NCBI GenBank assembly: GCA_019636275.1
Contig: JAHBXY010000015.1
Coordinates: 23,649 to 87,648, forward strand
From: Planctomycetota bacterium
GTDB lineage: Bacteria > Planctomycetota > J058
Direction: 5' to 3'
DNA length: 64,000 nt
Below, piece by piece: positions 8,871 to 30,649 of this stretch. The position numbers and the translations under genes were made by a program. The notes under the pieces are model-generated. The model was not told where the DNA came from. It made no database searches and saw only the letters and a list, made by a program, of their open reading frames with translations. Every line of letters begins with the position of its first letter. Positions within the stretch are counted from its first letter, which is position 1.

Positions 8871-8993
8871 GAGGCGAGGCCGCGGAGGCTGAGGCGAGGC
8901 GGCGCGCGCGCGGGCGACGACGTATCGGCATACTTCGAGCCCGCGCGCGCGCCGCCCCGCCCAGCATCCGCGGCCGCAGCCGTCGAGCACACA
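8871..8993 (-). repeat. Interspersed hairpin repeat, family 1, copy 1
   Basis: A long imperfect inverted repeat lies immediately 3' of the esterase stop codon, read on the minus strand. Arms 8878-8915 and 8939-8975 pair almost fully; the apex holds a smaller GTAT-CGGC-ATAC hairpin. The outer end GCAGCCGTCGA (plus strand) abuts the stop codon and is identical in copies at 17019 and 30525. No T-tract follows, so it is not a classical intrinsic terminator. Confidence 0.8.
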
Positions 8994-10118
8994 TCAAGGG
9001 GTGCGGTCGCCCAGACAGTGCGCGACCCAGGCGCCGAGCCGCTCCTCGTAGTCGGGCGGGAAGGCGTGCTCGTCCATCCCCTCGTAGGCGTGGGCGTCGA
9101 CGCGCGCGCCGAGGCGGCGCAGGGAGCGGGTCACCTCGTCCGCCCGGTCGACGTTCTCGGGCTCCTCGGAGGCGCCGACGCGCACGACGAAGCCGCGGCC
9201 GGCGTGGGCCTCGGCGGCCGCGACCTGCTCGAGGCGCGACGCCTCGCGCGAGCCCGGCGAGAGGACGATCGCCCCGGCGAAGGTGGCCGGGTCGCGCGCG
9301 GCGACCTCGGCCGCGACCTGCGCCCCCTGCGAGAAGCCGACGAGGACCACCCGCCCCGGCGCGATCGTCACGCGGTCGGCGACCGCCGCCAGGGCCTGCT
9401 TCACCCGGTCCGCGTCGCGCGCCGGGTCCTCGCTCCAGGCGTAGGCGCGCGGCCCGAGCGGCGTCGTGCCGCTCACGCCGACGAAGGCCACGCCCAGGCG
9501 GTCGGCGAGCTTCTGGTAGTCGTCCGGGTCGGCGAAGTCGCGCGGATGGGCGCCGAGGCCGTGAAGGCCGACGACCGCCGTGAGCGGCCGCCCCGGCGCG
9601 TAGCCGGCCGGGACGACGAGCAGCGTCTCGGACCGGCCGCTCCGCTCCCAGTAGGCGTTGCAGTCGTCGAGGAAGTTGGCCACCTCCTCCCAGCGCCGGT
9701 CGTCGCGCAGGGCCGCGAGGTCCTCGTCCTCGCGCGCCCAGGCGGCGTCGACGCCCTCCTCGATGGCCCCCCGCTGCAGCCAGTAGAGGGCGGCGTCCAC
9801 CTTGCGCGCCAGGGCGTAGAAGCAGGCCAGGTTGTAGTGCCCCTCGCCGCCGCCCTGCCGGGCGAGGATCGACCAGTGCTGCAGGGCGATCGCCTCGTCG
9901 AGGGCCCCCGCCTCGTAGCGCTCGTAGGCGCGCGCGCGCAGGGCCTGGCCGTCGAGCGTCTTGAGGTCCAGGGCGCCCAGCCGCGCCGGCGGCGCGGGCG
10001 GCGCCGGCAGCTCGAGCGGCGGCCGCGGGGGCGGCGCCTCCTTCCTCGGCTGCTGCGCCTGCGCGGCGGCGGGGAGGGCGAGGAGCAGGGCGAGCGTCGC
10101 GGCGAGCGGGCGGGGCAT
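8994..10118 (-). CDS. Secreted alpha/beta-hydrolase (esterase) with N-terminal TPR-like region
   Basis: 374 residues with a signal peptide ending near AAQAQ. After a Pro-rich linker, a helical repeat region (about 55-150; YEAGALDEAIALQHW and HYNLACFYALARKVDAAL) resembles TPRs. The C-terminal half is a phospholipase/carboxylesterase or feruloyl-esterase-like hydrolase: LHGLGAHPRDF (oxyanion region), GFSQGAQ (nucleophile Ser) and DEHAFPPDY (catalytic His). It probably hydrolyses an ester in the periplasm or outside; the substrate is unknown. The family-1 hairpin repeat follows its stop codon directly. Confidence 0.8.
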   Translation of the reverse strand: MPRPLAATLALLLALPAAAQAQQPRKEAPPPRPPLELPAPPAPPARLGALDLKTLDGQALRARAYERYEAGALDEAIALQHWSILARQGGGEGHYNLACFYALARKVDAALYWLQRGAIEEGVDAAWAREDEDLAALRDDRRWEEVANFLDDCNAYWERSGRSETLLVVPAGYAPGRPLTAVVGLHGLGAHPRDFADPDDYQKLADRLGVAFVGVSGTTPLGPRAYAWSEDPARDADRVKQALAAVADRVTIAPGRVVLVGFSQGAQVAAEVAARDPATFAGAIVLSPGSREASRLEQVAAAEAHAGRGFVVRVGASEEPENVDRADEVTRSLRRLGARVDAHAYEGMDEHAFPPDYEERLGAWVAHCLGDRTP

Positions 10119-10169
10119 GGGGCCTCCGGTGGGGGAGGACGATACCAGCCGCGCCGCTCGCCGGCGCCG

Positions 10170-11321
10170 TCACACCATCGTCGGGCGCGGCACCTCGCGC
10201 GGCGGGGCCCCGCGGTAGGCCGCTCGGGGGCGGTAGAGGGCGTGGTCGTCCCACAGCTCGAGCGCGTGCGCGCCCCAGCCGAAGGCGCGCGACATGGCGA
10301 AGAGCGCCGTGAAGCAGTCGGGCTCGAGGCCGAGGGCCGCGAACACGGCCCCCTTGTAGAAGTCCACGTTGGCGCGGATCCGCTTGCCCTGGGCCGCGAA
10401 GCGCGCGGCCGCGTGGTCGTCGATCGCCGCGAGCGTCTCGAGCACGCGCACGTGCGCGGGGCCGAGGGCGCGCGCGAGGTCCAGGGCCATCGGCCGCAGG
10501 ACGAGCGCGCGCGGGTCGACGACGCGGTACTCGCGGTGCCCGAGGCCCATGATCTTGTGCTTGCGCGCCAGGGCGGCGTCGACCCAGGCGAGGGCGGCCT
10601 CGGGCCCGCCGACCTCGAGCGCCATGCGGTAGGCGGCCTCGTCGGCGCCGCCGTGGAGCGGCCCATGGAGCGCCGCGACGCCGGCGGCCAGCGACTCGGA
10701 CAGCGGCGCCAGGGTCGAGGCGACCGTGCGCACGGCGAAGGTCGAGGCGTTGAAGCCGTGCTCCATCTGCAGCGCCTGCGTGGCGTCGAGCACGGCCACC
10801 TCGCGCGCGTCGGGCGCCGCCCCGCGCGTCATGCGCAGGAAGTCGGCGTGGAGCGGCAGGGCCGGGTCGGGCGCGAGCGGCGCGAGCCCGCGCCGCAGGC
10901 GCGTCCACGCGGCGACGACCGTGGGCAGGCGCGCCGCCAAGGCCAGCAGCGCCGCCCGCTGCGCCGGGCGCGCGCCCAGGCGCGGGCGCTCCTTCGATGC
11001 GGCGTCGTCGAGGAGCGGCAGGACCACGGCGAGGACCGTCATCGGGTGCGTGTCGCGCGGCAGGCGGGCGAGGACGTCCTGCGCCGCCGCCGGCAGGGCG
11101 CGGTCGGCGAGGGCCCCCTCCAGGGCGGCCACGTCGGTCGGCCCCGGCAGCTCGCCGTCGACGACGAGGCCCACGACCTCGAGGAAGCTGGCCCGCTCGA
11201 CCAGCTCCGCGATCAGGTAGCCCCGGTAGCGCAGCTCGCCGCGCTCGCCGTCGATCGACGAGATCGCCGTCGCGTCGGCCACCACTCCCGCCATGCCCTT
11301 CGTCCAGCTCGCCTCGCTCAT
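10170..11321 (-). CDS. Citrate synthase / 2-methylcitrate synthase family
   Basis: 383 residues from ATG (MSEASWTKG), typical of the short type II-like bacterial enzymes. An upstream extension of the frame crosses the divergent regulator and was rejected. Catalytic and binding landmarks are present: MEHGFNAST, LHGGADEAAY (His), MGLGHREYRVVDPR (His) and NVDFYKGAVF (Asp). The enzyme condenses acetyl-CoA with oxaloacetate, or propionyl-CoA in the methylcitrate cycle. No other prp or TCA genes are near, so the substrate cannot be decided. A LysR-type regulator is divergently transcribed, with a dyad between the starts. Confidence 0.9.
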   Translation of the reverse strand: MSEASWTKGMAGVVADATAISSIDGERGELRYRGYLIAELVERASFLEVVGLVVDGELPGPTDVAALEGALADRALPAAAQDVLARLPRDTHPMTVLAVVLPLLDDAASKERPRLGARPAQRAALLALAARLPTVVAAWTRLRRGLAPLAPDPALPLHADFLRMTRGAAPDAREVAVLDATQALQMEHGFNASTFAVRTVASTLAPLSESLAAGVAALHGPLHGGADEAAYRMALEVGGPEAALAWVDAALARKHKIMGLGHREYRVVDPRALVLRPMALDLARALGPAHVRVLETLAAIDDHAAARFAAQGKRIRANVDFYKGAVFAALGLEPDCFTALFAMSRAFGWGAHALELWDDHALYRPRAAYRGAPPREVPRPTMV

Positions 11322-11370
11322 CGTCGCCTCCACGCCCCGGAGGCTACCGCCGCCACGTCGAGCAGCGTCA

Positions 11371-11391
11371 TTGAAAGTCATGTACCTTCGA
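11371..11391. promoter_or_regulatory. Dyad in the citrate synthase/LysR divergent promoter region
   Basis: The 85-bp gap between the divergent starts contains the half-sites GAAAGT and ACCTTC separated by five bases, flanked by TT and GA, in the only AT-rich patch of the region. An interrupted dyad with 5-bp spacing fits the T-N11-A type of LysR-family binding site. It most likely serves both genes; the assignment is inferred from position and symmetry. Confidence 0.5.
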
Positions 11392-11406
11392 TTAGCGTGG
11401 CTACTC

Positions 11407-12297
11407 ATGGAGCTGCACGAGCTGCGTCTGTTCAAGGCGGTCGTCGACCAGCGCGGCTTCGCCCGGGCGGCCGAGACCTCGTTCCTCACCCAGTCGGCCG
11501 TGAGCCAGGCGGTGCGGCGCCTCGAGGACGAGCTCAAGGCGCGGCTGCTCACGCGCACGCGCCCGCCGGCGCCGACGCCCGCCGGGGCGCGGCTGTACGA
11601 GCTGGCGGGCGACCTCCTGGCGCGCGAGGCGGCGGCGCGCCGCGACGTGGAGGAGATCGCCAAGGGGGGCACCGGCGTGCTGACGCTCGGCGCCTCGCAG
11701 GCGCTCTCGCGCGAGGTGCTGCCGGGGCTCGTGCGCGAGTTCCACGCCCGCCGGCCGCGGGCGGCGGTGCACCTCGAGACGCTCCCCAGCCGCGAGCTCG
11801 TGCGCGTCGTGGCCGACGGCCGCCTCGAGCTCGGCCTGGGGCCCTTCCAGAAACACATGCCGGGGTTCGAGCGGCGCGCGCTCGGCCAGCAGCGCATGGT
11901 GCTCTACGTCGCGCGCCGGGCGCCCTGGCGTCGCGCGCTCGAGCGGCAGGGCGAGGCCGCCCTGCGCGACGTGCCGCTCGTGACCTCGAGCCTCGACGCG
12001 CCTGGCGCCCGCCCGGGCGGCGGGCGCCTGCGCGAGCGCTTCCGCACGGTGTGGGTGGTGCACAGCATGGACGTGCGCCTCGAGCTGGTGCGCGCCGGGC
12101 TGGCCGTGGGCTACCTGCCCGAGTCGACCGTGGCCCTCGCCGCGCGGCCGCGCGACCTGGTGCCGGTCGCCGGGGTGGACTTCGGCGTGATCCGACGCGA
12201 CGTGGGGCTGTTCTGGCTGGCCAAGCGGCCGCTGTCGGAGGCGGGACGGGAGCTGGTCGCGGGCGCGCGGCTCACGACCCCGCCGCGCTCGAGCTGA
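11407..12297 (+). CDS. LysR-family transcriptional regulator
   Basis: 296 residues from ATG (MELHELRLFKAVV). The N-terminal winged helix-turn-helix is standard (FARAAETSFLTQSAVSQAVRRLEDEL, residues about 15-45), followed by the linker helix and a periplasmic-binding-protein-like effector domain (LGASQALSREVLPGLVREF onward). It is divergent from citrate synthase, an arrangement matching the known citR-citA pair of Bacillus subtilis, where the LysR protein controls the synthase gene. Its 3' end overlaps the convergent membrane-protein gene by 26 bp. Confidence 0.9.
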   Translation: MELHELRLFKAVVDQRGFARAAETSFLTQSAVSQAVRRLEDELKARLLTRTRPPAPTPAGARLYELAGDLLAREAAARRDVEEIAKGGTGVLTLGASQALSREVLPGLVREFHARRPRAAVHLETLPSRELVRVVADGRLELGLGPFQKHMPGFERRALGQQRMVLYVARRAPWRRALERQGEAALRDVPLVTSSLDAPGARPGGGRLRERFRTVWVVHSMDVRLELVRAGLAVGYLPESTVALAARPRDLVPVAGVDFGVIRRDVGLFWLAKRPLSEAGRELVAGARLTTPPRSS

Positions 12298-13012
12298 CGA
12301 AGTAGGCCATCACGACCTGCAGCACGAGCGCGGCCGTGCCCAGCTCGTCGACGGTGTCCTCGAGCGACTCGGCCAGCCAGGGCAGCTCGACGCGCACGAC
12401 GAGGTGCGCCATGAGGAGCGCATACGGCGCCAGGAGGACGAGCACCCAGGCGCCGCGCTCGAAGCGCCCCGGCTCGCGGTCGGCGCGCACGCGGCCGACG
12501 GTGTAGGCGACGAGGCCCAGGGCCACGAGCGTGGCCGGGTACCAGCGCGCGAACGTGGCCAGGTGCTCGCCGTGCGGCCAGACGCTCACGTCGACCACGC
12601 GGCGCACCTGGAGGAGCACGAGCACGGCGCAGGCGAGCGGCAGGAGGACGAACAGCCAGCCGCCCAGCCGCCCGCCGATCAGGCCGCGGATGCTGCGCAC
12701 GCCCGCCTGCACGCAGCCCCAGCCGAGGAGGCTCGCCGCGACGAGGCAGGCGACGGCGTAGACGGGCAGGTCGTCCGCGTCGAGCGGCGCCGGCCAGTGG
12801 GCCGGGTCGATCACGGCCAGGCCCGCGCACACGACCAGCCCCGACATGCCGAGCCAGCCAGCCCGCAGGGCCCAGGGGAGCAGGAAGGCGTTGACGCGCT
12901 CGCGCGTCGTCTGGACGACCGTCACCGCGGCGTCGGTCGCCTTGACCGGCGCCGACGCCGCGTCGACCAGCCGCTGCGTGGTGGTCTTCTTCTTCGGCTG
13001 GCGCCGGGCCAT
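12272..13012 (-). CDS. Hypothetical multi-pass membrane protein
   Basis: 246 residues from an ATG giving a Lys-rich N-terminus (MARRQPKKKTTTQ); a start at 13048 would add 12 residues. An amphipathic stretch is followed by about six hydrophobic segments: around LPWALRAGWLGMSGLVVC, VYAVACLVAASLLGW, LGGWLFVLLPLACAVLVLL, YPATLVALGLVAY, GAWVLVLLAPYALLMAHL and a last one near the C-terminus. I do not recognise a family or functional residues. Its 3' end overlaps the LysR gene tail to tail. Confidence 0.65.
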   Translation of the reverse strand: MARRQPKKKTTTQRLVDAASAPVKATDAAVTVVQTTRERVNAFLLPWALRAGWLGMSGLVVCAGLAVIDPAHWPAPLDADDLPVYAVACLVAASLLGWGCVQAGVRSIRGLIGGRLGGWLFVLLPLACAVLVLLQVRRVVDVSVWPHGEHLATFARWYPATLVALGLVAYTVGRVRADREPGRFERGAWVLVLLAPYALLMAHLVVRVELPWLAESLEDTVDELGTAALVLQVVMAYFVSSSAAGS

Positions 13013-13117
13013 GGAGGCAGCGTACTGCTCCCGCGGACGCCTCGCCACGCGCGCGGCGGAGACGGGCCGATCTATCAGGTCGGAAACCTGCTCACGCTGG
13101 CGGTAGCGGGCGAGGGC

Positions 13118-13660
13118 CTACCGGTACTCGAGCCAGAACTCCACCTGGGTCTCGAGCAGCTCGATCCGGCGCCACTTGTGCGGCAAGCGATCCGTGGGTT
13201 GAGGCTGCCGTCCGGAGCCATGGAGCCGGGGCTGGCGTTTGGGCTCCTTCCGGAGCACGGCCTCCACGCCAAGCCAGTGGCGTCCGGCGCGCTGGTGGTG
13301 GAGCTGGGCGACGCGGTCGTTCACGGCGCGGCCGAGCAGCGCGCGGAACTCCTCGGGCGGCAAGGAGGGCGAACGCCGGCGGGACAGTGATCGCCAGGCG
13401 GGCGCGCTCGGGCAGCGGGGCGCGCGCGGGCTCGTGGCGACGCCGGCGAGCGCAGCCGGAGTCGTCGGCGCGGTCAGCCGCGTCGTCCGTGTCCGCGGCG
13501 GGCTTCCGGAAGAAGAAGTCGGGGCGCGCCGCGTCCACGACGCGTGTGCCCACGTCCTCGGCGAGCGTCCGTAGCCCGGGCCACTCGCCCGGCGTGGGCA
13601 CGAGGCGGGCGGCGACGCCGCTGGTGGTCAAATAGAACAGCTTTGTCCAGAATGGCCGCT
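13118..13660 (-). pseudogene. Transposase remnant (IS200/RAYT-like, C-terminal part, frameshifted)
   Basis: Two adjoining minus-strand frames read as one degraded protein. From about 13660 down comes LFYLTTSGVAARLV, PGEWPGLRTLAEDVG and RLAITVPPAFALL. After a one-base shift near 13370 it continues as PPEEFRALLGRAVNDRV, GRHWLGVEAVL and ends WLEYR at a TAG. This resembles the C-terminal half of REP-associated tyrosine (Y1, IS200-like) transposases. The N-terminal catalytic half with the HUH motif is missing. Family assignment is by memory of conserved phrases, so it is moderate. The remnant lies directly beside the duplicated antitoxin locus. Confidence 0.5.
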
Positions 13661-13736
13661 TCCTCGCCCAGGCTCTACGTGGCGGTCGACCAGGCCGACC
13701 TGCGGGCGGCGGTGGAGCGGCTGCCTGGCACCAACG

Positions 13737-14235
13737 GGTGATAGGCTGGCTGTCGGGGAGTTGTACCGTGCCCCAGAGCAAGAAGAAGACGACGAAACAG
13801 AAGCGGCCGCGGTCGTCGCGGGCGTCATGGAGCGAGGGTGAGCGTCGCCTGGCCCGCATGGCTGAAGAAGCAGGCGTGAAGCCGATTCGCGACATTGCCG
13901 ACCTGGCATACGGAACTCCCGAGGATGCGGACGAGCTCCTCTCCGCGATCCGCGAGATGCGTGCGATCGAACGACGGGCGCCTGCGGTGATAGGCTGACG
14001 TCGGCTGGGAGGTGCGCCGTGCCCCAGAGCAAAAAGAAGACGACCAAGAAGAAGCGCCCGCGCTCCTCGCGCGCATCGTGGACCGAGGGCGAGCGGCGGG
14101 TCGACCGCATGGCTCGGGAGGCGGGCATCAAGCCGATTCGAGACCTCGCGGACCTCGCGCACGTGAGCCCAGAGGACGGGGAGGAGTTGCTCTCCGCGAT
14201 CAGGGAGATGCGCGAACAGGAGCGGCGAGCCGAAG
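13737..14235 (+). repeat. Tandem duplication of antitoxin gene and promoter (period about 249 bp)
   Basis: GGTGATAGGCTG occurs at 13737 and again at 13986. Each copy is followed by a short leader, a GTG start and near-identical codons for PQSKKKTTK-KRPRSSRASW. In the first unit the second copy of GGTGATAGGCTG replaces the original 3' end of the gene, so the duplication junction lies just after the ERRA codons. The repeated GATAGG patch may be the -10 of each unit. Confidence 0.75.
13768..13998 (+). CDS. Antitoxin-like protein, duplicated and C-terminally truncated copy
   Basis: 76 residues from a GTG start chosen by alignment with the downstream paralogue. The Lys-rich N-terminus (PQSKKKTTKQKRPRSS) is followed by SWSEGERRLARMAEEAGVKPIRDIADLAYGTPEDADELL, about 75% identical to its neighbour. 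The C-terminus ends ERRAPAVIG, read from the promoter sequence of the next unit, in place of the basic tail EAEKAKRSRASKRA. It is probably a product of local tandem duplication and may be a partially functional, tail-less antitoxin or a regulator. Confidence 0.65.
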   Translation: MPQSKKKTTKQKRPRSSRASWSEGERRLARMAEEAGVKPIRDIADLAYGTPEDADELLSAIREMRAIERRAPAVIG

Positions 14236-14276
14236 CGGAGAAGGCGAAGCGGAGTCGAGCGTCCAAGCGCGCATGA
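14019..14276 (+). CDS. Antitoxin of a PIN-type toxin-antitoxin pair
   Basis: 85 residues from GTG (PQSKKKTTKKKRPRSSRASW). The basic N-terminus looks suited to DNA binding; the middle (GIKPIRDLADLAHVSPEDGEELLSAIREMREQ) is helical and acidic and is the likely toxin-wrapping part; the tail is again basic. It overlaps the PIN toxin gene by 4 bp (ATGA), the standard order for VapBC-like pairs. It does not look like the common AbrB, RHH or Phd antitoxin families, so its family is unknown to me. Autoregulation is likely by analogy. Confidence 0.75.
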   Translation: MPQSKKKTTKKKRPRSSRASWTEGERRVDRMAREAGIKPIRDLADLAHVSPEDGEELLSAIREMREQERRAEAEKAKRSRASKRA

Positions 14277-14674: not shown

Positions 14675-14788
14675 TCGGGCGCCCGCAGAGCGGCAAGAGA
14701 GCGCGGCGTGTTCGGCTCGTGTTCGCACTTAGGGGGGCCAAGGCGAATCGTATACGCCCAGGATCAGGTCGGCCAACGCGAAGCCAGG

Positions 14789-16945: not shown

Positions 16946-17018
16946 GGGCTTCAGGGCCTGCCTTCAAGGCGAACTTGCGCTCGACACGCTCGAGCCACGG
17001 GTGGAATGCAACCACAAG

Positions 17019-17137
17019 CGAGGCGAGGCCGCGGAGGCCGAGGCGAGGGGGGAGCGCGCGCGGGTCGTATCAGACGCCCTGATCCTACGACCCGCGCGCG
17101 CCCCCCCTCGCCCGGCATCCGCGGCCGCAGCCGTCGA
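17019..17137 (-). repeat. Interspersed hairpin repeat, family 1, copy 2
   Basis: It lies directly after the TAG of the minus-strand gene at 17138. Arms starting 17027 and ending 17126 pair along nearly their full length; the apex extends through GGGTCGTA/TACGACCC and a TCAG/CTGA tip. Compared with copy 1 the middle of both arms has changed together (GAGGGGGG against CCCCCCTC), so pairing is kept. The same bulged A and G-A mismatch recur on the left arm. Confidence 0.8.
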
Positions 17138-18229
17138 CTAGTAAAGGACCTCGACGCGGGCGGTGACGCGCTCGACGCCGGGGACCGCGCGCGCGACCTC
17201 GAGAGCCCGCGCCAGGAGGGCTGGGTCGCTCACGCGGCCGCGCAGGGTCACGGACCGCGAGGGGCTGACGTCGACCCACAGCCGCACGCCGTGCGCCTCG
17301 AGGGCGCGGATGATCGTCCACTTGAGCCGCTCGGTCGCGGCCCGCGCGGCGCCCTTGGCGCAGGCGGTCACCCACAGGTCGCGCAGGAGCGCGGCGCCGC
17401 GCTGCATGCGCGCCGCGACGAACGCGCGCCCCTCCTCGCCCACGGGGGTGGCCTCGTTGCCCTCGGTGAAGGCGCCGCGCTTGTCGAGGCGGTAGAGGTC
17501 GCGGACGAGGCCGTTCGACTCGAGGACGAGGTCCCAGATCGCGCGCGCGTAGTCGAGGTCGTCCTTCGCCGGCGGCAGCGCCGGCACGACGAGGCGGTCG
17601 CCCAGGCGCGAGACGAAGTCGCTCTCGAAGCGCGCGTGGGTGCCCTTGTCGGTGGCGAAGCCCTCGGGGTTGTCGCCCGTCCAGCCGTTGTAGTGGATCG
17701 TCGTGTGGTGCGGGTTGGCCAGGTCGGCAACGTAGTGGCCGAGGACGCCCGCGGCGTAGATGAGGTTCTCCTCGGCCTGCCGCCGGCGCGCCGCGGCGTC
17801 GGGGTGGGCCGGGTCGATCGTCTCCAGCGCCACGACGGCGGCCTCGATGCGCTGGCACAGCTCGACCACGCGGTAGGGCGCGAAGCCCACCTTCTCGGGG
17901 TCCTGGCCCTCGGCCACGAGGCGGCGCGCGTACTCGTGGCGGTTGGCCGGCGGCCGGGCGGGGTCGATGCCCTTGGCGATCTCGAGGTCGACGAAGTGGT
18001 CGGGCGCGAGGCCCTTCGACATGGCCTCCAGGGCCGAGATGCGCCAGCGGTCGGGCTCGGGGCCGAGGTAGGTGAGGCGCGCCACGTTCTCGCGCAGGAG
18101 CGCCGGGGCCCCGGCCGGGAGGCCACGGGCAGCCGCCTCGCTGACGAGCTCGTGGCCCCGGTCGCCCCAGGCGCGGGCGGGCGCGGCGGCGGCCAGGAGG
18201 AGCAGGGCACAGGTGAGGACGCGGCGCAT
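17138..18229 (-). CDS. Secreted S1/P1-nuclease or zinc-phospholipase-C-like protein with C-terminal BON domain
   Basis: 363 residues from ATG with AGGAGG upstream. The signal peptide ends ARA before W21 (WGDRGHELVSEAA); a mature N-terminal Trp and nearby His are typical zinc ligands of S1/P1 nucleases and phospholipase C. A second ligand cluster, GVLGHYVADLANPHHTTIHY, lies near residue 165-185. The last 70 residues form a BON-like domain (RSVTLRGRVSDPALLARALEVARAVPGVERV), usually phospholipid- or outer-membrane-associated. The likely role is a zinc-dependent periplasmic or extracellular phosphodiesterase held near the outer membrane. Substrate, nucleic acid or phospholipid, is undecided. Confidence 0.75.
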   Translation of the reverse strand: MRRVLTCALLLLAAAAPARAWGDRGHELVSEAAARGLPAGAPALLRENVARLTYLGPEPDRWRISALEAMSKGLAPDHFVDLEIAKGIDPARPPANRHEYARRLVAEGQDPEKVGFAPYRVVELCQRIEAAVVALETIDPAHPDAAARRRQAEENLIYAAGVLGHYVADLANPHHTTIHYNGWTGDNPEGFATDKGTHARFESDFVSRLGDRLVVPALPPAKDDLDYARAIWDLVLESNGLVRDLYRLDKRGAFTEGNEATPVGEEGRAFVAARMQRGAALLRDLWVTACAKGAARAATERLKWTIIRALEAHGVRLWVDVSPSRSVTLRGRVSDPALLARALEVARAVPGVERVTARVEVLY

Positions 18230-18359
18230 GGGACCTCCTCGGTGGCGAGCAGGGTAACCGATGGGCCCGGCGACTCGGGGCGCGCGCGCGGGCGGCTTCG
18301 AGGTCTGGCGCGCCACGCGCGTCAGCGCCGTCCCGTCCGGCGAAAGAGGAGGAGAGACG

Positions 18360-19548
18360 GTGATCGAGCAGGCACGAGGTGGGTCTTCTCGCGCATCCCG
18401 GGGGCAGTCACGACGTGCGGCTGGCGCGGCCGAGGGCGCGGCCGCGCGCGGCGGCGTGACGGCGCGCCCCGCCGTGCGCACGCAGCGACTGAGCGTCGCT
18501 CACGACGTCGAGCCACCGCCAGGGCCACCCCGCGCCACGGGGACCCGTCGGGTCCGGCTCGCCGACGAGCCTTCGAGCCCGGCTCCGGACGCGGTCGGTG
18601 GTCCGGAGTCCGCCTTCGTCGCCGAGGCCCTCGCCCGGCGCGACGCGCGCGCCTGGCAGGACGCACTCGTCCTGGCGCCGCCGCCGCGGCGCACCGGGGC
18701 CGACGACGCCGGGCTCCTGCTGCTGCTCCTCGTGCTCGCGCTCGGCGCTTGGCGCTTCACCGCGACGCCACCCGCGCCCGTCGACGTGCGGGCCGCCGCG
18801 TCGTCCGCGCCGCGCTCCGGCCCGGGAGAGGTGGAGCAGGCGGTCGCGCCCGTCACTCGCCCTGATGCCGCGTCCCCGCATGGAGTGCTTGCGGCCGGCG
18901 GCCTCGCGGCGCTCGCGGCGGCGGGCTTCGCCCTGCTCCGGACCCAGGCCGGCGCCGGCCTGGCCTTCGCGGGCGCGGCGGCGCTCGCCGCGCTGCTGAT
19001 CGGGCGCCCGCCGGACGCCCCGACCGCGGCGCTGACCCTGGCGACCGTCGGCTTCGTGCTCGTCGCATCGCGCGGCGCGGCGCTCGCCTGGGAGGTCGGC
19101 GCGTCGGCTGCGCTCGTGGCGGTCGCGTCGGTCACGACCCCGACCGTGGGCGCCGCGCTGCTGGGGGCGTGGGCCGTCGAGGCCGCGGTCGCGGCCCGGG
19201 GCCCGGCCGCGCTGGCGCGCGGCGCCCTGGCCTCGCCGCTCCTGTTGCGCAGGCGGGCGCACCGTCTGGGCCGGCGGCGAGGGGCGTGCTCGGCGCGCCG
19301 GGCCTGCCTGGCGGCGCCGTGCTGCTCCTCGCCGCGCCGGGCGCCGTCGTGCTCTGCGCGCGCGGCGCGTGGGTGGCGGGCCTGGCGCCCCTGCTACTCC
19401 TCGTCGCCGGCGCGCCCGGGGCTGGCCGGCGCTCGCGAGCCCCTTCCTCGCGCTCGCCGTCGTGGCCGGGCTCGACGCGGGCGGGCGCGCCCTGCGGGGC
19501 CGCGCCCGCGTCGGTCCGGTCGGCGCGAGGCCGCTCGTCCCGTGCTGA
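18360..19548 (+). pseudogene. Multi-pass membrane protein gene, apparently broken by two frameshifts
   Basis: A GTG at 18360 follows AGGAGGAGAGACG. The first frame encodes a polar N-terminus and then hydrophobic helices (AGLLLLLLVLALGAW, LAAGGLAALAAAGFALL, GLAFAGAAALAALLIG, LTLATVGFVLVASRG, ALVAVASVTTPTVGAAL) to about 19245. The same hydrophobic character continues in a second frame (GGAVLLLAAPGAVVLCARG, GLAPLLLLVAGAPG) to about 19430, then in a third (ALASPFLALAVVAGLDAGG) to a TGA at 19546-19548. I do not recognise the family. Either the gene is decayed or the assembly has two indels in GC-rich runs. Confidence 0.5.
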
Positions 19549-19558
19549 ACGGCCGAGA

Positions 19559-22300: not shown

Positions 22301-23458
22301 TCACGACCCCGTGGGCGGTGAATCGGACGAAGCCGCCTCGAGCTCCTGGATGCGCCGCTTGAGCTCGTCCTCGATCTCGATCTGCTCCATGGAGATCTCG
22401 TCGATCTCCTGGACGACCTTGCGGTGCTCCTCGCGCCAGTGCTCGACCTCGGCCCGCGCCTCCTCGAGCGAGCGCGTCAGGCGCTCGAGCTCGCTCTCGG
22501 CGGTCGACGCGGCCTGCTGCGCGCGCAGCTCCTGCTGCGCGTCGTCCGCGCGCTTCTCGGCCTCGAGCGCGCGCGCGCGCGCCTCCTCGAGCTCCTGCTC
22601 CAGGCGGTCGCCGCGCTCGCGGGCGGCGGTCAGGGCGTCGTCGCCCGCGGCCGCGGCGGTCGCCGCCGCGCGCGCCTCGTCGAGCGCCTTCTTCAGCTCG
22701 TCGATCTCCGCCTGCAGCTTCTCGCGCGCGCGGGCGACCTCCTTCTTGGCCTGCTCCGAGCGCTCCTTCAGGCGGCCCTCGAGGTCCACGACCTTGGCCT
22801 CGGCGCCCTGCGCCCGCGTCTCGAGCTCGACCGCGCGCGTGGCGTGCTCGCGCCGGAGCTTCTCCAGCGCGCCGTCGTCGGCCTGGGGCGCCTTCGCGCG
22901 CGCCGCCACCAGCTCGCGCTCGAGCTCGCGCACCCGCTGCTCGAGCTGGCCCGCCCTGGCCGCGTCGCCGAGCGGCGTGCCCCGCGGCACGTCGAGGAAC
23001 TTCTCCAGCGCCTCGCGCATGCGCCGCTCGTCGCGGAGCTGCGCCTGGAGCTGGGCCGCGTTCGCGTCGGCCGGCGCGCCCTCGAGCGCGCGGTCCCACC
23101 AGGGCTGCTCGGCGGCCGGCGCGGCCGCCGGAGCCGCCGGCGCGGGGGCGCTCGGGGCGCCGGCGGCGCCGGCGACGGCGAACTTGACCTTGGTCTTGCC
23201 GAAGTAGATGACGTCGTTGGCCCGCAGCTCGCGCCGCTTGACCTTCTCGCCGTTGACCCAGGTGCCGTTCGACGACCCGGCGTCCTCGAGGAAGAAGCGC
23301 TCGCCCTCGCGCATGATCCGCGCGTGGTTCCAGGAGATCCACGGGTCGCGGATCGAGAGCCGGGCCGTCTTGCGGTTGCCGACGTCCACGACCTCGTCGC
23401 CCTCGATGTCGAGGACGAAGCCCTGCCGCTTGCCGCTGAGGACCTGGAGCTGCACCAT
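22301..23458 (-). CDS. FHA-domain protein with long C-terminal coiled coil
   Basis: 385 residues from ATG at MVQLQVLSGKRQGF; the frame allows a start 19 codons earlier. The FHA domain (residues 1-95) has the conserved phosphothreonine-binding residues: ARLSIRDPWISWNHARI (Arg, Ser, His) and EDAGSSNGTWVNG (Ser-Asn-Gly). An Ala/Pro linker leads to about 230 residues of heptad-rich coiled coil (LEQRVRELERELVAARAKA, LEDELKRRIQELEAAS). It probably recognises a kinase-phosphorylated partner and dimerises or scaffolds through the coil. It is divergent from the outer-membrane sorting protein. Confidence 0.88.
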   Translation of the reverse strand: MVQLQVLSGKRQGFVLDIEGDEVVDVGNRKTARLSIRDPWISWNHARIMREGERFFLEDAGSSNGTWVNGEKVKRRELRANDVIYFGKTKVKFAVAGAAGAPSAPAPAAPAAAPAAEQPWWDRALEGAPADANAAQLQAQLRDERRMREALEKFLDVPRGTPLGDAARAGQLEQRVRELERELVAARAKAPQADDGALEKLRREHATRAVELETRAQGAEAKVVDLEGRLKERSEQAKKEVARAREKLQAEIDELKKALDEARAAATAAAAGDDALTAARERGDRLEQELEEARARALEAEKRADDAQQELRAQQAASTAESELERLTRSLEEARAEVEHWREEHRKVVQEIDEISMEQIEIEDELKRRIQELEAASSDSPPTGS

Positions 23459-23580
23459 CCTCGAGCCGACCCCCCCCAGGCGCGCGGCGAGGCCGGGCGC
23501 GCCGCGTAAGGTCATAGCTCAGGCCGCGGCGCCTCCGCAAGCGCTGGACCGCCCCGACCTCGCCGCTCCGCCGGGCGGAC

Positions 23581-23586
23581 TATACT
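23581..23586 (+). promoter_or_regulatory. Candidate -10 box (TATACT)
   Basis: TATACT stands out in GC-rich sequence 24 bases before the ATG at 23610 and would give a leader of about 17 nt that contains the GGAGGAG ribosome site. No convincing -35 is seen at the right distance. Confidence 0.45.
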
Positions 23587-23609
23587 GGGCCCCCGATCCG
23601 GAGGAGCCC

Positions 23610-24401
23610 ATGAAGCCGCGTCCCCTCGCCCGCCTCGCCCCCGCCGCCCTCGTCGCCCTGGCCGCGGCCACCGCCTGGGCGCAGCAGGACCTGACCGCCG
23701 AGCAGATCGTGCGGCGCGCCGACCGCGACCACCGCTCCCGCGACGAGCGCGGCGTGGTCGAGATGGTCCTCATCTCCGAGGCCGACGACCAGCGCCAGCT
23801 GCGCAGCATGGAGATCCTCGGCAAGACCGGGGAGGGCGACGACGACCTGAACCTCGTCCGCTTCCTCGCCCCGCCGACGGTCCGCGGCACGGCGGTGCTC
23901 ACCGTCGAGGCCACCGGCCGCGCCGACGACCAGTGGCTCTACCTGCCCGCGCTGAAGAAGACCAAGCGCATCGCCTCGACGCAGCGCACCCAGCGCTTCG
24001 CCGGGACGGACTTCACCTACGAGGACCTGCGCACGGAGAACTTCGCCGCCTGGACCTACCGCAAGCTGGACGACGCGCGCGTGGCCGATGTCGACTGCTT
24101 CGTCGTCGAGGCCACGCCGAAGGACCCGGAGGAGACCGGCTACGCGAAGCGGGTCATCTCCGTCGAGAAGGCGCGCTTCCTCATCCACAAGGTCGAGTTC
24201 TTCGACAAGCAGGGGCGACACCACAAGACGCTCGTCAACCGCGACTGGGAGCAGGTCCAGGGGCTGTGGCGCTCGCGCCAGGCGATGATGGAGGACCACC
24301 AGCGGCGCACGAAGACGATCTGGCGCTTCACCGAGCGCGCCATCAACCCGGGCCTGCCGGACGGGACGTTCACCGAGGCGAACCTCGAGCGGGGGCTCTG
24401 A
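23610..24401 (+). CDS. Outer membrane lipoprotein-sorting (LolA-like) protein
   Basis: 263 residues from ATG behind GGAGGAG, with signal peptide ending AWAQQ. The body matches proteins annotated as outer-membrane lipoprotein-sorting protein: EQIVRRADRDHRSRDERGVVEMVL, NLVRFLAPPTVRGTAVLTVE, DDQWLYLPALKKTKRIA, GTDFTYEDL and KRVISVEKARFLIHKVEFFD. These are periplasmic LolA/LppX-fold lipid-binding proteins, often paired with RND/MMPL exporters. No such exporter adjoins here; the RND operon is 17 kb away. It is followed by the 82-bp tandem repeat array. Confidence 0.85.
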   Translation: MKPRPLARLAPAALVALAAATAWAQQDLTAEQIVRRADRDHRSRDERGVVEMVLISEADDQRQLRSMEILGKTGEGDDDLNLVRFLAPPTVRGTAVLTVEATGRADDQWLYLPALKKTKRIASTQRTQRFAGTDFTYEDLRTENFAAWTYRKLDDARVADVDCFVVEATPKDPEETGYAKRVISVEKARFLIHKVEFFDKQGRHHKTLVNRDWEQVQGLWRSRQAMMEDHQRRTKTIWRFTERAINPGLPDGTFTEANLERGL

Positions 24402-24408
24402 GACCTGC

Positions 24409-24737
24409 GATGAGTGATGCGCTCGCGAGGGGCGGGCGATCGGCACCAGCCCCGGACCGGCACGAACTGACCCGTTTCGCCCGTCCCCAACGATGATGAT
24501 GCGCTCGCGAGGGGCGGGCGATCGGCACGAGCCCCGGACCGGCACGAACTGGCCCGTTCCGCCCGTCCCCAACGATGATGATGCGCTCGCGAGGGGCGGG
24601 CGATCGGCGCGAGCCCCGGACCGGCACGAACCGACCCGTTTCGCCCGTCCCCAACGATGATGATGCGCTCGCGAGGGGCGGGCGATCGGCGCGAGCCCCG
24701 GACCGGCACGAACCGACCCGTTTCGCCCGTCCCCATC
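24409..24737. repeat. 82-bp tandem repeat, four copies
   Basis: Units start at 24409, 24492, 24574 and 24656, each opening GATGATGATGCGCTCGCGAG and ending CCCGTCCCCAAC. The first unit has one extra base and the last passes into unique sequence after CCCGTCCCCA. Units 3 and 4 are nearly identical; units 1 and 2 differ at a few sites. GGGGCGGGC near the start of each unit can pair with GCCCGTCCCC near its end. Because 82 is not a multiple of three, no frame stays in register. The array fills most of the 443-bp gap between two co-directed genes; the remaining 100 bases show no recognisable site. Confidence 0.9.
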
Positions 24738-24844
24738 GCTCGCTCTGGCGGATCGAGACGAGCGGCGAGAGGAGATGCGGAGGACGCGCGAGGTCGCCCT
24801 CCCGGACCTCTGAATCGCCTGGCACGACCCCAAGGGGAACCCAC

Positions 24845-27373: not shown

Positions 27374-27549
27374 CTCACAGCGGCCGTCGCTTGTTCTGAT
27401 GTCCACGTCCGGGCGCGCGGCTCGATGCTCCGATCCGCAGTGAGACACCTGTCGCCCTCGCTCCGGCCGCTACGCGGCCTCCGCTCGGGGATGCGCGCCA
27501 CCGCTCGATCTGCTCGCTTCGCTCGCAGATCAAGCGGTGAGCGCGGTCA
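27374..27549. repeat. Interspersed 176-bp repeat, family 2, copy A
   Basis: It fills the gap between two convergent genes, starting right after the TGA of the left gene and ending on the TGA of the right gene. It matches 45831-46006 without gaps at roughly 90% identity. Two hairpins are visible: GGCCGC-TAC-GCGGCC, and a longer stem pairing CACCGCTCGATCTG with CAGATCAAGCGGTG. It may act as a two-way terminator or be a small mobile element. Confidence 0.85.
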
Positions 27550-28269
27550 GCCGACCAGCACCACGACCGCCGTGGCGTCGTCGGTGAGCCCCAGCCGGTC
27601 GGCCCGCTCGACGAGCGCCTCGGCGATCGCCTGCGGGTCGTCGCCCTGGGAGAGCGACTCCGCCACGCGGCCCTCGTCGAGCACCTTCAGCACGCCGTCC
27701 GAGCAGAGGAGCAGCCGGTCGCCCGGGCGCAGGTCGCCCGTGGTCACGTCGGGCACCACGTCCTCGCGCCGGGCGATCAGCGTGCGCGTGAGGAGGTTCT
27801 GGTTGGGGTGCGTGCGCAGCTGGTCCTTCGTGATCCCGCCCGCCTCGAGCTGCTCCCAGGCCACCGAGTGGTCGCGCGTGAGCTGCTCGAGCCGCCCGTC
27901 GCGCAGCAGGTACGCCCGGGTGTCGCCCACGTGGACGATCCACCACGCCTCGTCCACGAGCTGCAACGCGGTGAGCGTCGTCGCCATGGACCCGAGCGCC
28001 GGCTCGGCGCGCCCGCGGGCGTGGAGGGCGCGCGCGGCGCGCCCGGCGGCCCGGCCCAGCCAGGGGCGCAGGGCGTCGTCCACCGGCCGGCCGCCGGCCA
28101 GGGCCTCGTGGCAGGCCTCGACGGCCAGGGCGCTGGCGATCGCCGCGCCGCGGTACTGGCCGACGCCGTCGGCGACGGCGTAGAAGCGCCGCTCGTCGTC
28201 GCGCAGCAGCGCGTCCTCGTTCGGCCCGTCGGGGCCGGCGCGCGTCGTCCCGCCCGAGCGTGGGGTCAT
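27547..28269 (-). CDS. PP2C-family Ser/Thr protein phosphatase
   Basis: 240 residues from ATG, the usual length for stand-alone bacterial PP2C enzymes. Metal-binding and core motifs are present: GPNEDALL, YAVADGVGQYRG, MATTLTAL, HVGDTRAYLLRDG, LTRDHSV, LLCSDGV and LTDDATAVVV. It removes phosphate from Ser/Thr using two Mn2+/Mg2+ ions. It is divergent from an MglA-like GTPase and could counteract the dual kinase encoded at 41-46 kb or others in the genome. Its stop codon coincides with the end of the family-2 repeat. Confidence 0.9.
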   Translation of the reverse strand: MTPRSGGTTRAGPDGPNEDALLRDDERRFYAVADGVGQYRGAAIASALAVEACHEALAGGRPVDDALRPWLGRAAGRAARALHARGRAEPALGSMATTLTALQLVDEAWWIVHVGDTRAYLLRDGRLEQLTRDHSVAWEQLEAGGITKDQLRTHPNQNLLTRTLIARREDVVPDVTTGDLRPGDRLLLCSDGVLKVLDEGRVAESLSQGDDPQAIAEALVERADRLGLTDDATAVVVLVG

Positions 28270-28437
28270 GACCTCAGCGTACCCCGCCGCGTCCGGTCGT
28301 GAAGCGGCGCCGGCCGCGGATTCTCGCCGGCAGGGGTGAAATGCCCGGACGCGGCGGGCGCGCCTGGCTCGGCCCGCCTGGGCATCGCCGCTCGGCCCCC
28401 GATCTGCTCACGGCTCGCGCGGAGGGAGCGCGAGCGG

Positions 28438-29145
28438 ATGGCCGATCACGACCGCGAACGAGACGAGCTGCACCTGAAGGTGATCTACGCGGGGCCGCGC
28501 GGCGCGGGCAAGTCCGCGAGCCTGCAGGCGATCGCCAGGATGGCGACGCGGCACGGGCGGGCGGTCGACCCGCCGCAGGCCGCGCAGGCCGCCGGGCTCG
28601 TGGAGCACGTGCAGCTCCAGCTCGGGCGCGTGTTCGGGCGGCACACCGCCTTCGCGCACGTCCTGGCGCTCCCGGCGGGCGGCGCGCTCGCGCCGACGAC
28701 GCGGCTCCTGCTGCGCTCGGCCGACGCCGTCGTGTTCGTCGCCGACGCCAGCCCGGGGCGCGACCGGGACAACGCCCAGGCGCTCGAGCACCTCGAGTCG
28801 GCGCTGCGGCGCGAAGGCCGCGACCTGTGGTCGCTCCCGCTGGCCTTCCAGTGGAACAAGCGGGACCTGGGCGACCCCTCGCTCGGACCGGCCGACAAGC
28901 CCCGGCTGTGCCGCGGGCGGCCCTTCGTCAGCACGCGCGCCGACCGCGGGGACGGGGTCGTGACTGTCTTCCAGCGCGTGTGCCTCCCCGCCCTCCGCCG
29001 CGCCGGCGAGGCGCACGGCCTGGCCCCGGGCGCCCGCGCCGCCGGCTCCGCCCGGCCGACCGCGCCGGCCGAGGCCGCGGACCCGGCGCGGCCCCACGTC
29101 CTCGGGCGGCTGTTCGAGCGGGCGCGCGCCATGTTCGCCCGGTGA
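28438..29145 (+). CDS. MglA-like small GTPase
   Basis: 235 residues from ATG behind GGAGGGAG; a longer start at 28336 lacks a ribosome site. The P-loop GPRGAGKS covers residues 19-26. The central part (TTRLLLRSADAVVFVADASPGR, LPLAFQWNKRDLGD with N140KRD143) follows the MglA pattern rather than Ras, and the canonical DxxG switch II is replaced by a LPAGG stretch. MglA-type GTPases set cell polarity or control motility machines. No MglB roadblock partner is adjacent. The C-terminal 40 residues are an Ala/Pro-rich tail ending in a short helix. The divergent gap to the phosphatase (28270-28437) has no obvious promoter motif. Confidence 0.8.
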   Translation: MADHDRERDELHLKVIYAGPRGAGKSASLQAIARMATRHGRAVDPPQAAQAAGLVEHVQLQLGRVFGRHTAFAHVLALPAGGALAPTTRLLLRSADAVVFVADASPGRDRDNAQALEHLESALRREGRDLWSLPLAFQWNKRDLGDPSLGPADKPRLCRGRPFVSTRADRGDGVVTVFQRVCLPALRRAGEAHGLAPGARAAGSARPTAPAEAADPARPHVLGRLFERARAMFAR

Positions 29146-29239
29146 CAGGAGTCCGGCCTCGCAGGCCGGACACGTGCCTTCTCGCCCGTCGCTCGCCCCC
29201 GTAGCCTGGGGGCCTCGTGCGACCCGGGGAGGGGGGACG

Positions 29240-30487
29240 ATGGAGAAGAAGCCGCGTCGGCGCTGGACCCGGTTGACCCTGGGGCTCGCGGTCGTGTTCG
29301 TGACCCACGCCGTGGGCGCCACCCTGGCCTCCGGCCGCCCGACGCGCTGCGTGTGCGAGGGCCCGGCCTGGCTGCCGGCGGTGGCCACGGCGCCCGCGGC
29401 GCTCGCCACCGACGCCCCTCCCCTGCGCGTCGTCACCTACAACCTGCACAGCGGCCTCGGCCCGCGCCTGTCCTTCGGCAAGCCGCGCGCCGAGGTCGAG
29501 CGCAACCTGCGCGCGATCGGCGCCGCGATCGTCGACGCCGCCCCCGGTCACGCGCCCGACGTCGTCGGCCTCAACGAGGTCGACTTCGACTCGCGCCGCA
29601 GCGCCGGGATCGACCAGGCCGCCTTCCTCGCCCGCGACCTGGAGCGCCGCACGGGCGCCCCCTACGCCGTGGTCGAGGGCGTGACCTGGGTGCGGCGCAC
29701 CCGCGGCTTCGAGGTGCGCTACGGCAACGCCGCGCTGGTGCGCCACCCGGTCGTGCGCGCCGAGGCGCTCGCGTTCGACGACATGGACACGCCCGACCTC
29801 CCCGGCGTCCGCTCGGGCCTGCTCCTCGACCGCCTCGTGCGCGAGGGGCGCGGCGTGGTCAAGGTCACGATCGCCGCCCCCGCCGGCGAGGTCGACGTCC
29901 TCGTCACCCATCTCGACGCCTTCGCGCAGGCCGAGCGCGAGGCGCAGGCGGCGCACCTCCTGCGGCACGTGGGCGCCGGGCGGACGACCGTCCTCCTGGG
30001 CGACTTCAACGCCGTGCCCACGCCGCTGACGCTCGGGCGGCGCTTCTTCCGCGACGACCTGACCCACGACCTGCTCACCAGCGGCGGCCTGGCCGACGCC
30101 CGGCTCGTGCTCGCCGCCCGCGACGGTCTGGCCAACCTGGCCGGCTGGGCCACGTTCCCGGCCGACGCGCCCGAGTGGCCGCTCGACGGGATCCTGGGCA
30201 GCCTCGACCTCCTCCCCGCGCGCGCGGCCGTCGTGGGGACGACCGAGTCCGACCACCGCGGGCTCGTCGTCGACTACCACCCGGCCGGGGACCTCGCCGG
30301 CCCGCTGCGCTCCTGGCACGACGCCGTGCGGCGCCGCCAGGTCGCGCACATCGAGGGCTGCGCCGAGGGCGACGACCCGCACGCGGCGTCGCTCGCCCCC
30401 GGGGCCCACGACCAGCGCGAGCACCGCCGCCGGCGCCTCCTGGCCGGCAGCGGCTTCGCCGACCTTCTCGGCCTCCGCGGGGAGTGA
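29240..30487 (+). CDS. Endonuclease/exonuclease/phosphatase (EEP) family protein, membrane-anchored or secreted
   Basis: 415 residues from ATG (MEKKPRRRWTRL) after GGAGGGGGGAC. An N-terminal hydrophobic helix (LTLGLAVVFVTHAVGATLA) works as signal or anchor. EEP fold motifs are intact: VVTYNLHSG, VVGLNEVDFDS, VLVTHLDA, VLLGDFNAVP and TTESDHRGLVVDY with the catalytic Asp-His. The family includes nucleases, inositol phosphatases and sphingomyelinases; a periplasmic phosphodiesterase is the most that can be said. A basic C-terminal extension of about 80 residues follows the fold. Its 3' end faces the porin operon, with hairpin repeat copy 3 between. Confidence 0.85.
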   Translation: MEKKPRRRWTRLTLGLAVVFVTHAVGATLASGRPTRCVCEGPAWLPAVATAPAALATDAPPLRVVTYNLHSGLGPRLSFGKPRAEVERNLRAIGAAIVDAAPGHAPDVVGLNEVDFDSRRSAGIDQAAFLARDLERRTGAPYAVVEGVTWVRRTRGFEVRYGNAALVRHPVVRAEALAFDDMDTPDLPGVRSGLLLDRLVREGRGVVKVTIAAPAGEVDVLVTHLDAFAQAEREAQAAHLLRHVGAGRTTVLLGDFNAVPTPLTLGRRFFRDDLTHDLLTSGGLADARLVLAARDGLANLAGWATFPADAPEWPLDGILGSLDLLPARAAVVGTTESDHRGLVVDYHPAGDLAGPLRSWHDAVRRRQVAHIEGCAEGDDPHAASLAPGAHDQREHRRRRLLAGSGFADLLGLRGE

Positions 30488-30524
30488 GCCCTCGTAGCGC
30501 GTGAAGCCAACTGCTCGCCGGCAC

Positions 30525-30649
30525 GCGAGGCGAGGGCGACGAGGCTGAGCCGCGGCGGCGAGGCGCGCGGGCGACGACGTAGCGACTTACTTCGAGCCCG
30601 CGCGCGCGCCGCCGCGGCCAGCATCGTCGCCCGCAGCCGTCGAGCACAC
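30525..30649 (-). repeat. Interspersed hairpin repeat, family 1, copy 3
   Basis: It abuts the TAG of the porin gene on the minus strand. The left arm begins GGGCGACGA at 30534 and the right arm ends TCGTCGCCC at 30632. Copies 1 and 2 have GGCCGCGGA and TCCGCGGCC at these places, so three base pairs have changed on both sides together. The inner arm has likewise become GCCGCGGCGG on both sides. The apex is GTAG-CGA-CTTAC. Confidence 0.8.

What the first reader, a model, noticed from the sequence alone, without database searches (positions are those of the whole stretch)
8871..30649. Interspersed giant hairpin element with compensatory base changes, always just after a stop codon
Copies at 8871-8993, 17019-17137 and 30525-30649 share their outer ends and overall shape. 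Each folds into one hairpin of about 120 nt. Seen directly: copy 3 replaces GGCCGCGGA/TCCGCGGCC of copies 1 and 2 by GGGCGACGA/TCGTCGCCC, three paired changes; the inner arms also change together. A G-A mismatch and a bulged A at the left arm are constant. All three lie within about 10 bases after the stop codon of a minus-strand gene, in the same orientation. The three genes (esterase, S1/P1-BON protein, porin) are all exported. There is no T-tract. This points to selection on RNA or DNA structure: a 3'-UTR element, a protein-bound terminator or mRNA stabiliser, or a REP-like mobile element.
Basis: seen in the sequence. Interest (0 to 1): 0.85.

Follow-up and report, generated by a model that had tools for sequence, protein, structure and literature searches.

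The report
Mobile hairpins locked to stop codons
A planctomycete genome carries hundreds of copies of a DNA hairpin element of about 190 bases, and 44 of 53 sampled copies sit in the same orientation right at the stop codon of a gene; at nine such sites the sister species lacks a full copy while its protein ends at the same codon or one codon away, so the element has most likely moved in without damaging the protein and likely aims at the stop triplet itself.

Summary
In detail: the three window hairpins are real (z -7.7 to -12.6), lie just after minus-strand stop codons and co-vary. The hairpin is the core of a ~190-bp unit. Its head motif occurs 335 times in this 9.3-Mb Planctomycetota genome and 63 times in a sister genome; of ten further genomes of the class, one has a single diverged copy, also right after a stop, and nine have none among 150 scored candidates each. 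In a 1.16-Mb sample chosen by contig number, 44 of 53 primary copies have a same-strand stop within 15 nt upstream. At nine sites, including all three window copies, the sister lacks a full copy, and its protein ends at the same codon (7) or one codon away (2). Where a stop is recognised before the head, C precedes TGA in 48 of 55 (background 45%). A second, unrelated hairpin family uses the same address and has TGA at its far end in 27 of 29 copies. The paired changes are real, but wobble pairs are not favoured (38 G.U vs 53 A.C), so they do not show RNA-level selection. Exported genes are not enriched (21/81 vs 327/1307). It is a MITE/REP-like mobile element with an unusual stop-codon address; its enzyme was not found and a terminator role is untested.

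The parts
8805..8993 (-). copy 1, whole unit (subfamily A): head TGTGTGCTCGACGG, hairpin 8871-8993, tail ending ..GCGGTC just before TGAG
   Evidence: absent from the syntenic site in G001
8994..8996 (-). TGA stop of the alpha/beta-hydrolase (esterase-like) gene 8994-10118
   Evidence: the sister gene ends one codon earlier..GDRR* against ..GDRTP*
16954..17137 (-). copy 2, whole unit (subfamily B): truncated head TCGACGG directly after TAG, hairpin 17019-17137, tail ..GGCAGGCCC followed by TGA
   Evidence: empty site in G001
17138..17140 (-). TAG stop of the BON-domain gene 17138-18481; TAA at the same codon in the sister
30497..30649 (-). copy 3 (subfamily C): hairpin 30525-30649 with a shortened tail (outer limit by eye)
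   Evidence: empty site in G001
30650..30652 (-). TAG stop of the alginate-export/porin-like gene 30650-32191; same TAG in the sister
27378..27549 (-). second, unrelated hairpin family F2 (172 bp counted from its left TGA; TGA follows) at the stop of gene 27547-28269; the sister has an F1 copy at this same stop
   Evidence: repeat D17
45835..46006 (-). second window copy of F2; not at an annotated stop by the ORF list
   Evidence: repeat D17
24333..24820 (+). 82-bp tandem array of repeat family F3 around and after the stop of gene 23208-24401; the sister has F2 at this stop instead

Best explanation
It is a palindromic DNA element of about 190 bp, present in hundreds of copies and mostly found in one orientation at stop codons (TGA or TAG, mostly preceded by C), that has most likely spread as a mobile element and is likely moved by a transposase, not identified here, that is predicted to use the stop triplet as its target. 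Shown: the copies, the stop-codon address, the strong orientation bias, the sites without a full copy in the sister species, the C preference, a stop triplet at the far end of 24 of 81 units, and a second unrelated family with the same habit. Inferred: because the junction falls at the stop, the protein is left intact, so insertions survive there; the arms stay complementary by DNA-level processes (copying of whole subfamilies, arm-to-arm correction, or recognition of the folded end by the enzyme) and not by selection on the mRNA. The asymmetry (target triplet at the head side, a similar triplet at the far end, hairpins near the ends, one orientation) resembles IS200/IS605-type single-strand insertion 3' of a short motif; that step is a guess.
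For: 335 exact head motifs in G000 and 63 in G001, 0 for the reversed-pattern control. Sample of 60 loci chosen by contig number (1.16 Mb): 54 primary heads, 53 with context, 44 with a sense stop -3 to 15 nt upstream, 1 farther sense, 6 antisense, 2 scored inside a gene; p about 1e-53 against uniform intergenic placement. Nine sites without a full copy in G001 (window copies 1-3, L028, L034, L063, L074, L139, L237): sister stop at the same codon in 7, one codon away in 2, read from the alignments. Of 138 primary heads, 73 have a recognised TGA/TAG just before the head: C before TGA in 48 of 55 (background 45% of 582, p 8e-11), before TAG in 13 of 18 (30% of 233) (set includes loci fetched for their copies). 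In the unselected sample 27 of 53 heads follow a CTGA/CTAG/CTAA motif and in 23 of these it is a called stop; stops are 26% (331 of 1274) of non-genic CTGA/CTAG sites, p 2e-10. Tails: found in 81 of 140 primary units; TGA, TAG or TAA follows in 24 (about 1.3% expected from base composition, my arithmetic), TGG or CGA in 19. F2: TGA at the far end in 27 of 29 copies with a tail; in-frame stop at the head in 17 of 26, against 55 of 904 control TGACCG sites. G.U not preferred over A.C.
Against: No mobilising enzyme found: no Y1_Tnp in G000 or G001, no integron integrase above cut-off (no control genome passed it either), and no IS-sized pair of ends noticed in the ~2.0 Mb scanned (listing cut, transposase genes not looked for). 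The Y2_Tnp search is uninformative because its controls did not ring. Nine of 53 sampled copies are not scored at a sense stop and 26 of 53 lack the CTRR motif, though 20 of those 26 are still next to a stop. Four of 26 copies in tandem-gene settings face the other way. The left junction varies by 0-3 nt or is truncated, unlike a clean transposon end. The far-end triplet is not a stop in 57 of 81 units. B units carry TAG where the sister has TGA or TAA (L074, copy 2), so host or element origin of the stop is unresolved. Two of the nine sister sites are not clean: L063's holds a stretch like an F1 tail, L237's begins like F2 (by eye). No outgroup was used to tell gain from loss.
Confidence: 0.7

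Rival explanations
1. A functional 3'-UTR RNA (terminator, RNase barrier or mRNA stabiliser) that selection keeps next to stop codons, spread by copying.
For: Position and orientation at gene ends; strong hairpins; stop-adjacent copies precede a convergent gene in 21 of 43 against 30% of gene ends, p 0.011.
Against: No G.U bias, equal stability of both strands, no T-tract, fast turnover between sister species, and junctions exactly at the stop where a position 5-60 nt downstream should do as well.
Confidence: 0.15
2. Random insertion followed by selection: copies persist only where the reading frame ends at the element.
For: Insertions inside genes would be lost; the head carries stops in more than one frame, so it often supplies the stop itself.
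Against: Non-stop intergenic CTGA/CTAG sites outnumber stop sites 943 to 331 in the sample, yet only 4 of 27 motif-bearing copies are not scored at a stop; C preference at the target; 22 of 26 copies in tandem-gene settings in one orientation.
Confidence: 0.13
3. Integron-like attC sites (hairpins just after stop codons of gene cassettes).
For: attC sites also follow stop codons in one orientation, with conserved structure (recalled, not from a call).
Against: No integron integrase above its cut-off; copies follow unrelated chromosomal genes in conserved synteny, and the elements, not the genes, differ between species.
Confidence: 0.02
4. REP/BIME-type elements moved by a RAYT tyrosine transposase.
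For: Abundant palindromes at 3' ends of genes, polymorphic between close relatives; REPs are reported as predominantly downstream of coding regions (PMC3733652, abstract and passages).
Against: No Y1_Tnp/RAYT in either carrier genome; units of 190 bp, not 20-40 bp; no GTAG tag seen.
Confidence: 0.1

Closest known systems
ERIC/IRU, YPAL, RUP, NEMIS (small bacterial MITEs)
   Same: 100-200 bp, no protein, long hairpin, many intergenic copies; filled and empty sites reported for YPAL (review PMC2229807, passages)
   Different: Here the address is the stop codon itself with one preferred orientation; the flanking triplet is TGA/TAG and not the TA listed for most of those families
REP / REPIN with RAYT; GTAG- and CGTC-tagged REPs
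   Same: Palindromes at the 3' side of genes in hundreds of copies
   Different: No RAYT found, no GTAG tag, units several times longer; a CGTC can be read at the head on the opposite strand, but stems and loops do not fit the 8-9 bp CGTC families described in PMC3733652 (passages)
IS200/IS605 (IS608) and derived short elements
   Same: Insertion 3' of a fixed short motif kept in the left flank, another short cleavage motif at the right end, hairpins near the ends (IS608 in PMC5934647, passages)
   Different: No Y1 transposase found in either carrier genome; the left junction varies
IS1272 inverted-repeat-replacing insertion
   Same: A route by which hairpins near genes could be swapped (PMC5678879, passages)
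   Different: At copies 1 and 2 the sister sequence resumes after the element with no sign of a lost hairpin (by eye)
SPRITE of pneumococcus
   Same: Terminator-like repeat close to 3' ends of genes (PMC3049150, passages)
   Different: No T-tract here; placement is at the stop codon and not merely nearby

Membership tests
MITE (small non-autonomous mobile element) | Short, no protein, interspersed, with filled and empty sites | tested here: met
   ~190 bp units, 335 heads, nine sites without a full copy in the sister, two of them not clean
MITE (small non-autonomous mobile element) | Target-site duplication | tested here: inconclusive
   Stop triplet at the far end in 24 of 81 F1 units and 27 of 29 F2 copies, but host or element origin not separable; two B units differ from the sister's stop
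MITE (small non-autonomous mobile element) | Ends shared with an autonomous element | tested here: inconclusive
   None noticed in the ~2.0 Mb scanned; listing cut
REP/RAYT | RAYT (Y1_Tnp) in the genome | tested here: not met
   0 matches in G000 and G001; controls rang in 5 of 14; both genomes ~90% complete, so a missed copy is possible
REP/RAYT | 20-40 bp unit with GTAG or CGTC tag | tested here: not met
   Unit length and structure against PMC3733652
Integron attC | Integron integrase present | tested here: not met
   TIGR02249: 5 weak matches, none over cut-off; no control genome passed the cut-off either
IS200/IS605-derived element | Fixed target motif at left flank, one orientation, hairpins near the ends | tested here: inconclusive
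   Motif and orientation biased but not strict; resemblance only
IS200/IS605-derived element | Y1 transposase able to move it | tested here: not met
IS1272-type stem-loop replacement | Target hairpin lost on insertion | tested here: not met
   copies 1 and 2, by eye
Intrinsic terminator | Hairpin followed by a T-tract | tested here: not met
   sequence after the hairpin, by eye
Known Rfam family | Match at gathering score | tested here: not met
   0 matches in the window

The most novel reading that the evidence does not exclude
Stop codons are the dedicated landing sites of a guild of unrelated miniature mobile elements in this lineage: at least two hairpin families (F1 and F2) enter in one preferred orientation at TGA/TAG, reuse each other's sites, and are moved by one stop-triplet-recognising system that has no described counterpart and may act on termination-linked single-stranded DNA or RNA.
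Probability: 0.3. Interest if true: 0.85.

Novelty: new variant of a known kind. Interest (0 to 1): 0.62.

Why it matters
Mobile elements that avoid harm usually do so with complex target choosers (tRNA genes, attTn7; recalled). A tiny element that lands on stop codons, with the protein end kept to the codon or nearly so, would be a simple safe-site strategy open to test. It also shows that strong compensatory changes in a hairpin need not mean RNA function, which matters for covariation-based searches for structured RNA.

Tried and rejected
Rfam: nothing in the window; among six loci (four with reverse transcriptase) only two group II introns. RAYT, integron integrase and Y2 searches found no mobiliser. 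Reverse transcriptases: four matches in the genome, two beside group II intron sequence that lies next to, or inside, hairpin elements by eye; the head begins GTGTG, like a group II intron 5' end (recalled), but the element is too short and I saw no intron domain in it, so I dropped that idea. Hairpin replacement as in IS1272 was rejected from the copy 1 and 2 junctions. Exported-gene enrichment: none. Of the weak hits in other relatives I folded 7 loci; none showed the single long hairpin. A looser head scan (4 mismatches) gave mostly false positives and its output was cut.

Rows dropped before counts: secondary heads within 450 nt of another (10 of 64); 59 of 140 primary heads without a recognised tail; 65 of 138 primary heads without a recognised stop pattern (some are coding false heads); 34 of 162 copies not assignable to a subfamily. 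Of 24 rows, two are coding false heads; beyond the nine sites, the rest are shared, remnant, repeated, symmetric-intergenic, F2-bearing or low-identity cases. In one search the search pattern itself began with TGA, so only the far-end TGA count is independent; two rows of L098 share one tail.

Ten paper searches (two returned nothing) listed no bacterial mobile element that I recognised from title and abstract as stop-codon-targeting; the library is open-access only. Papers were seen as passages and one outline with abstract; none was read whole.

A recount changed my first tally of neighbouring genes: 22 tandem and 21 convergent among the 44 stop-adjacent copies (one without a downstream gene).
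Full report
WHAT IS THERE. The window lies in a Planctomycetota metagenome-assembled genome, G000 (9.33 Mb, 315 contigs, 90% complete), about 75% GC in the stretches sampled. The phylum is inferred from the named sister genome. On the gene-sense strand they fold at -104, -110 and -100 kcal/mol, z -8.6, -9.7 and -7.7; on the other strand z is -9.4, -12.6 and -8.9; 0 of 200 shuffles reach any of them. No Rfam family matches in the window.

COPY NUMBER AND SPREAD. The exact head motif CGACGGCTGCGGNCGNNGATGC occurs 335 times in G000 and 63 times in G001; the reversed control pattern gives 0. G001 was the only other member of the genus among 58 genomes searched, of which 13 had any match with copy 1 and only G000 and G001 had strong ones (15 candidates scored per genome). 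A covariance model, with 150 candidates scored per genome, gives 150 hits in G000 (saturated), 83 in G001, 1 in G002 (another genus of the family) and 0 in 9 other genomes of the class. The G002 copy (L267:874-990) stands directly after a TAG and folds into a hairpin; a search with it found that copy alone in G002 and short fragments in two of four other genomes of the family. As far as these searches reach, the expansion is confined to this genus.

ANATOMY. Subfamilies A, B and C differ in loop and arms. A long class carries a second ~118-nt inverted repeat in the loop. The repeated unit goes beyond the hairpin: from a head around GTGTGNTCGACGG to a tail usually 180-190 nt from the anchor (about 300 in long forms) that ends ..CGCTC or ..CAGGCCC. 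A tail was recognised in 81 of 140 primary units. What follows is TGA or CGA in 24 of 49 A-type tails and TAG, TGG or TAA in 15 of 32 B-type tails; a true stop triplet follows 24 of 81. CGA and TGG are what an unselected stop would drift to in a GC-rich genome (inference). Some sites are tandem arrays.

STOP-CODON ADDRESS. With a home-made codon-usage gene caller on 60 loci chosen by contig number (1.16 Mb, 862 genes), 54 primary heads were found and 53 had context. Of these, 44 have a same-strand stop -3 to 15 nt upstream, 1 lies farther, 6 follow an antisense gene and 2 were scored inside a gene, one of them at a contig edge. Uniform placement in intergenic DNA predicts about 3.8%, p about 1e-53. 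Offsets are discrete. In tandem-gene settings 22 copies face head to stop and 4 face the other way. Over all fetched G000 loci, 106 of 138 primary heads have an in-frame stop at the junction (this set includes loci fetched because they hold copies). Stop usage at the 44 (28 TGA, 15 TAG, 1 TAA) resembles the genome's (583, 233, 26), but the base before the stop does not: C before TGA in 48 of 55 against 45% (p 8e-11), and before TAG in 13 of 18 against 30%.

FILLED AND EMPTY SITES. The window is syntenic with G001:C13 at 82-90% identity, and the alignment breaks at the elements. Copy 1..GGCGACCGCACCCCT-TGA + element against ..GGCGACCGCCGC-TGA. Copy 2..GTCCTTTAC-TAG + element against ..GTCCTCTAC-TAA; after the element the host resumes without evident loss. 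Copy 3..AATTTC-TAG + element against ..AACTTC-TAG. Six further G000 copies have no full copy at the sister site: L028, L034, L063, L074, L139, L237. In 7 of the 9 the sister stop is at the same codon, in 2 (copy 1, L028) one codon away. Two are not clean: L063's sister site holds a stretch resembling an F1 tail and L237's begins like F2 (by eye). No outgroup was used to tell gain from loss. Other sites share the head with a changed interior (L137/L174), share the element (L041/L196), or carry different subfamilies in the two species at one gene (L033/L153).

A SECOND FAMILY AT THE SAME ADDRESS. A repeated-word profile of 831 stops found repeats near 61 of them, 42 our element and 19 others. 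F2 is an unrelated hairpin unit, 170-173 bp from its left TGA in 21 of 29 copies, with TGA at its far end in 27 of 29 (the left TGA was part of the pattern). It has an in-frame stop at its head in 17 of 26 copies, 7 others lacking coding signal, against 55 of 904 control TGACCG sites. At one stop the window has F2 and the sister has F1; at another the sister has F2 and the window an 82-bp F3 array; and one F2 copy (L010) sits at the TGA that ends an F1 copy. F3 matches are not tightly placed (4 of 26 at a sense stop, 9 inside genes, with a loose pattern) and F4 lies loosely 3' of genes (6 of 20), so the strict habit is shown for F1 and F2 only.

COVARIATION WITHOUT RNA SELECTION. Pairing across 45 copies is strong. 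If the mRNA were selected, G.U intermediates should outnumber A.C ones. Within subfamilies A, B and C (128 of 162 copies), one-sided changes give 38 G.U cells (28 distinct) and 53 A.C cells (30 distinct), with 125 compensated cells. Mean fold energy is -88.5 sense and -88.7 antisense; raw G.U counts in the folds are 187 and 138. The pairing is thus more likely kept at DNA level or by descent of subfamilies.

MECHANISM. No mobiliser was identified. The motif flank and orientation bias resemble IS608, which inserts precisely 3' of TTAC (PMC5934647, passages), but membership is not claimed because no Y1 transposase was found. The motif explains part of the address: 27 of 53 sampled heads follow CTGA/CTAG/CTAA, and 23 of these 27 are at called stops whereas stops are 26% of non-genic CTGA/CTAG sites, so selection for harmless positions or extra targeting must add to it. 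Whether the hairpins act as terminators is open.

Counts of far-end triplets, tandem and convergent neighbours and the two unclean sister sites were mended; the confidence of the main explanation went from 0.72 to 0.70 for that reason.

Noticed in passing
L258 (G000:C294) and L257 (G000:C24): Two group II introns with reverse transcriptase lie next to, or inside, hairpin elements of this superfamily (by eye), as if the introns use the hairpins as landing sites.
   Followed up: partly
window 24333-24820: 82-bp tandem array (repeat family F3) around and after the stop of gene 23208-24401; the sister species has an F2 element at that stop.
   Followed up: partly
L201:7919 (G001:C13 near 149237): A symmetric element with long inverted head repeats between TATAG and CTATA, intergenic, absent from the window; a differently built relative of the family.
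   Followed up: no
G001 loci L166, L183, L195: Elements with the same head but different inner sequence, suggesting modular exchange of the interior behind a conserved end.
   Followed up: no
L068, L070, L079, L080 and others: Repeat F4 (CAGAGGAGCAGAGGGAGCAGAGG) lies loosely 3' of genes (6 of 20 within 25 nt of a sense stop).
   Followed up: partly
window 13097-13672: A stretch with four matches (86-89%) in G001; the overlapping ORF 13092-14162 has no Pfam family.
   Followed up: no
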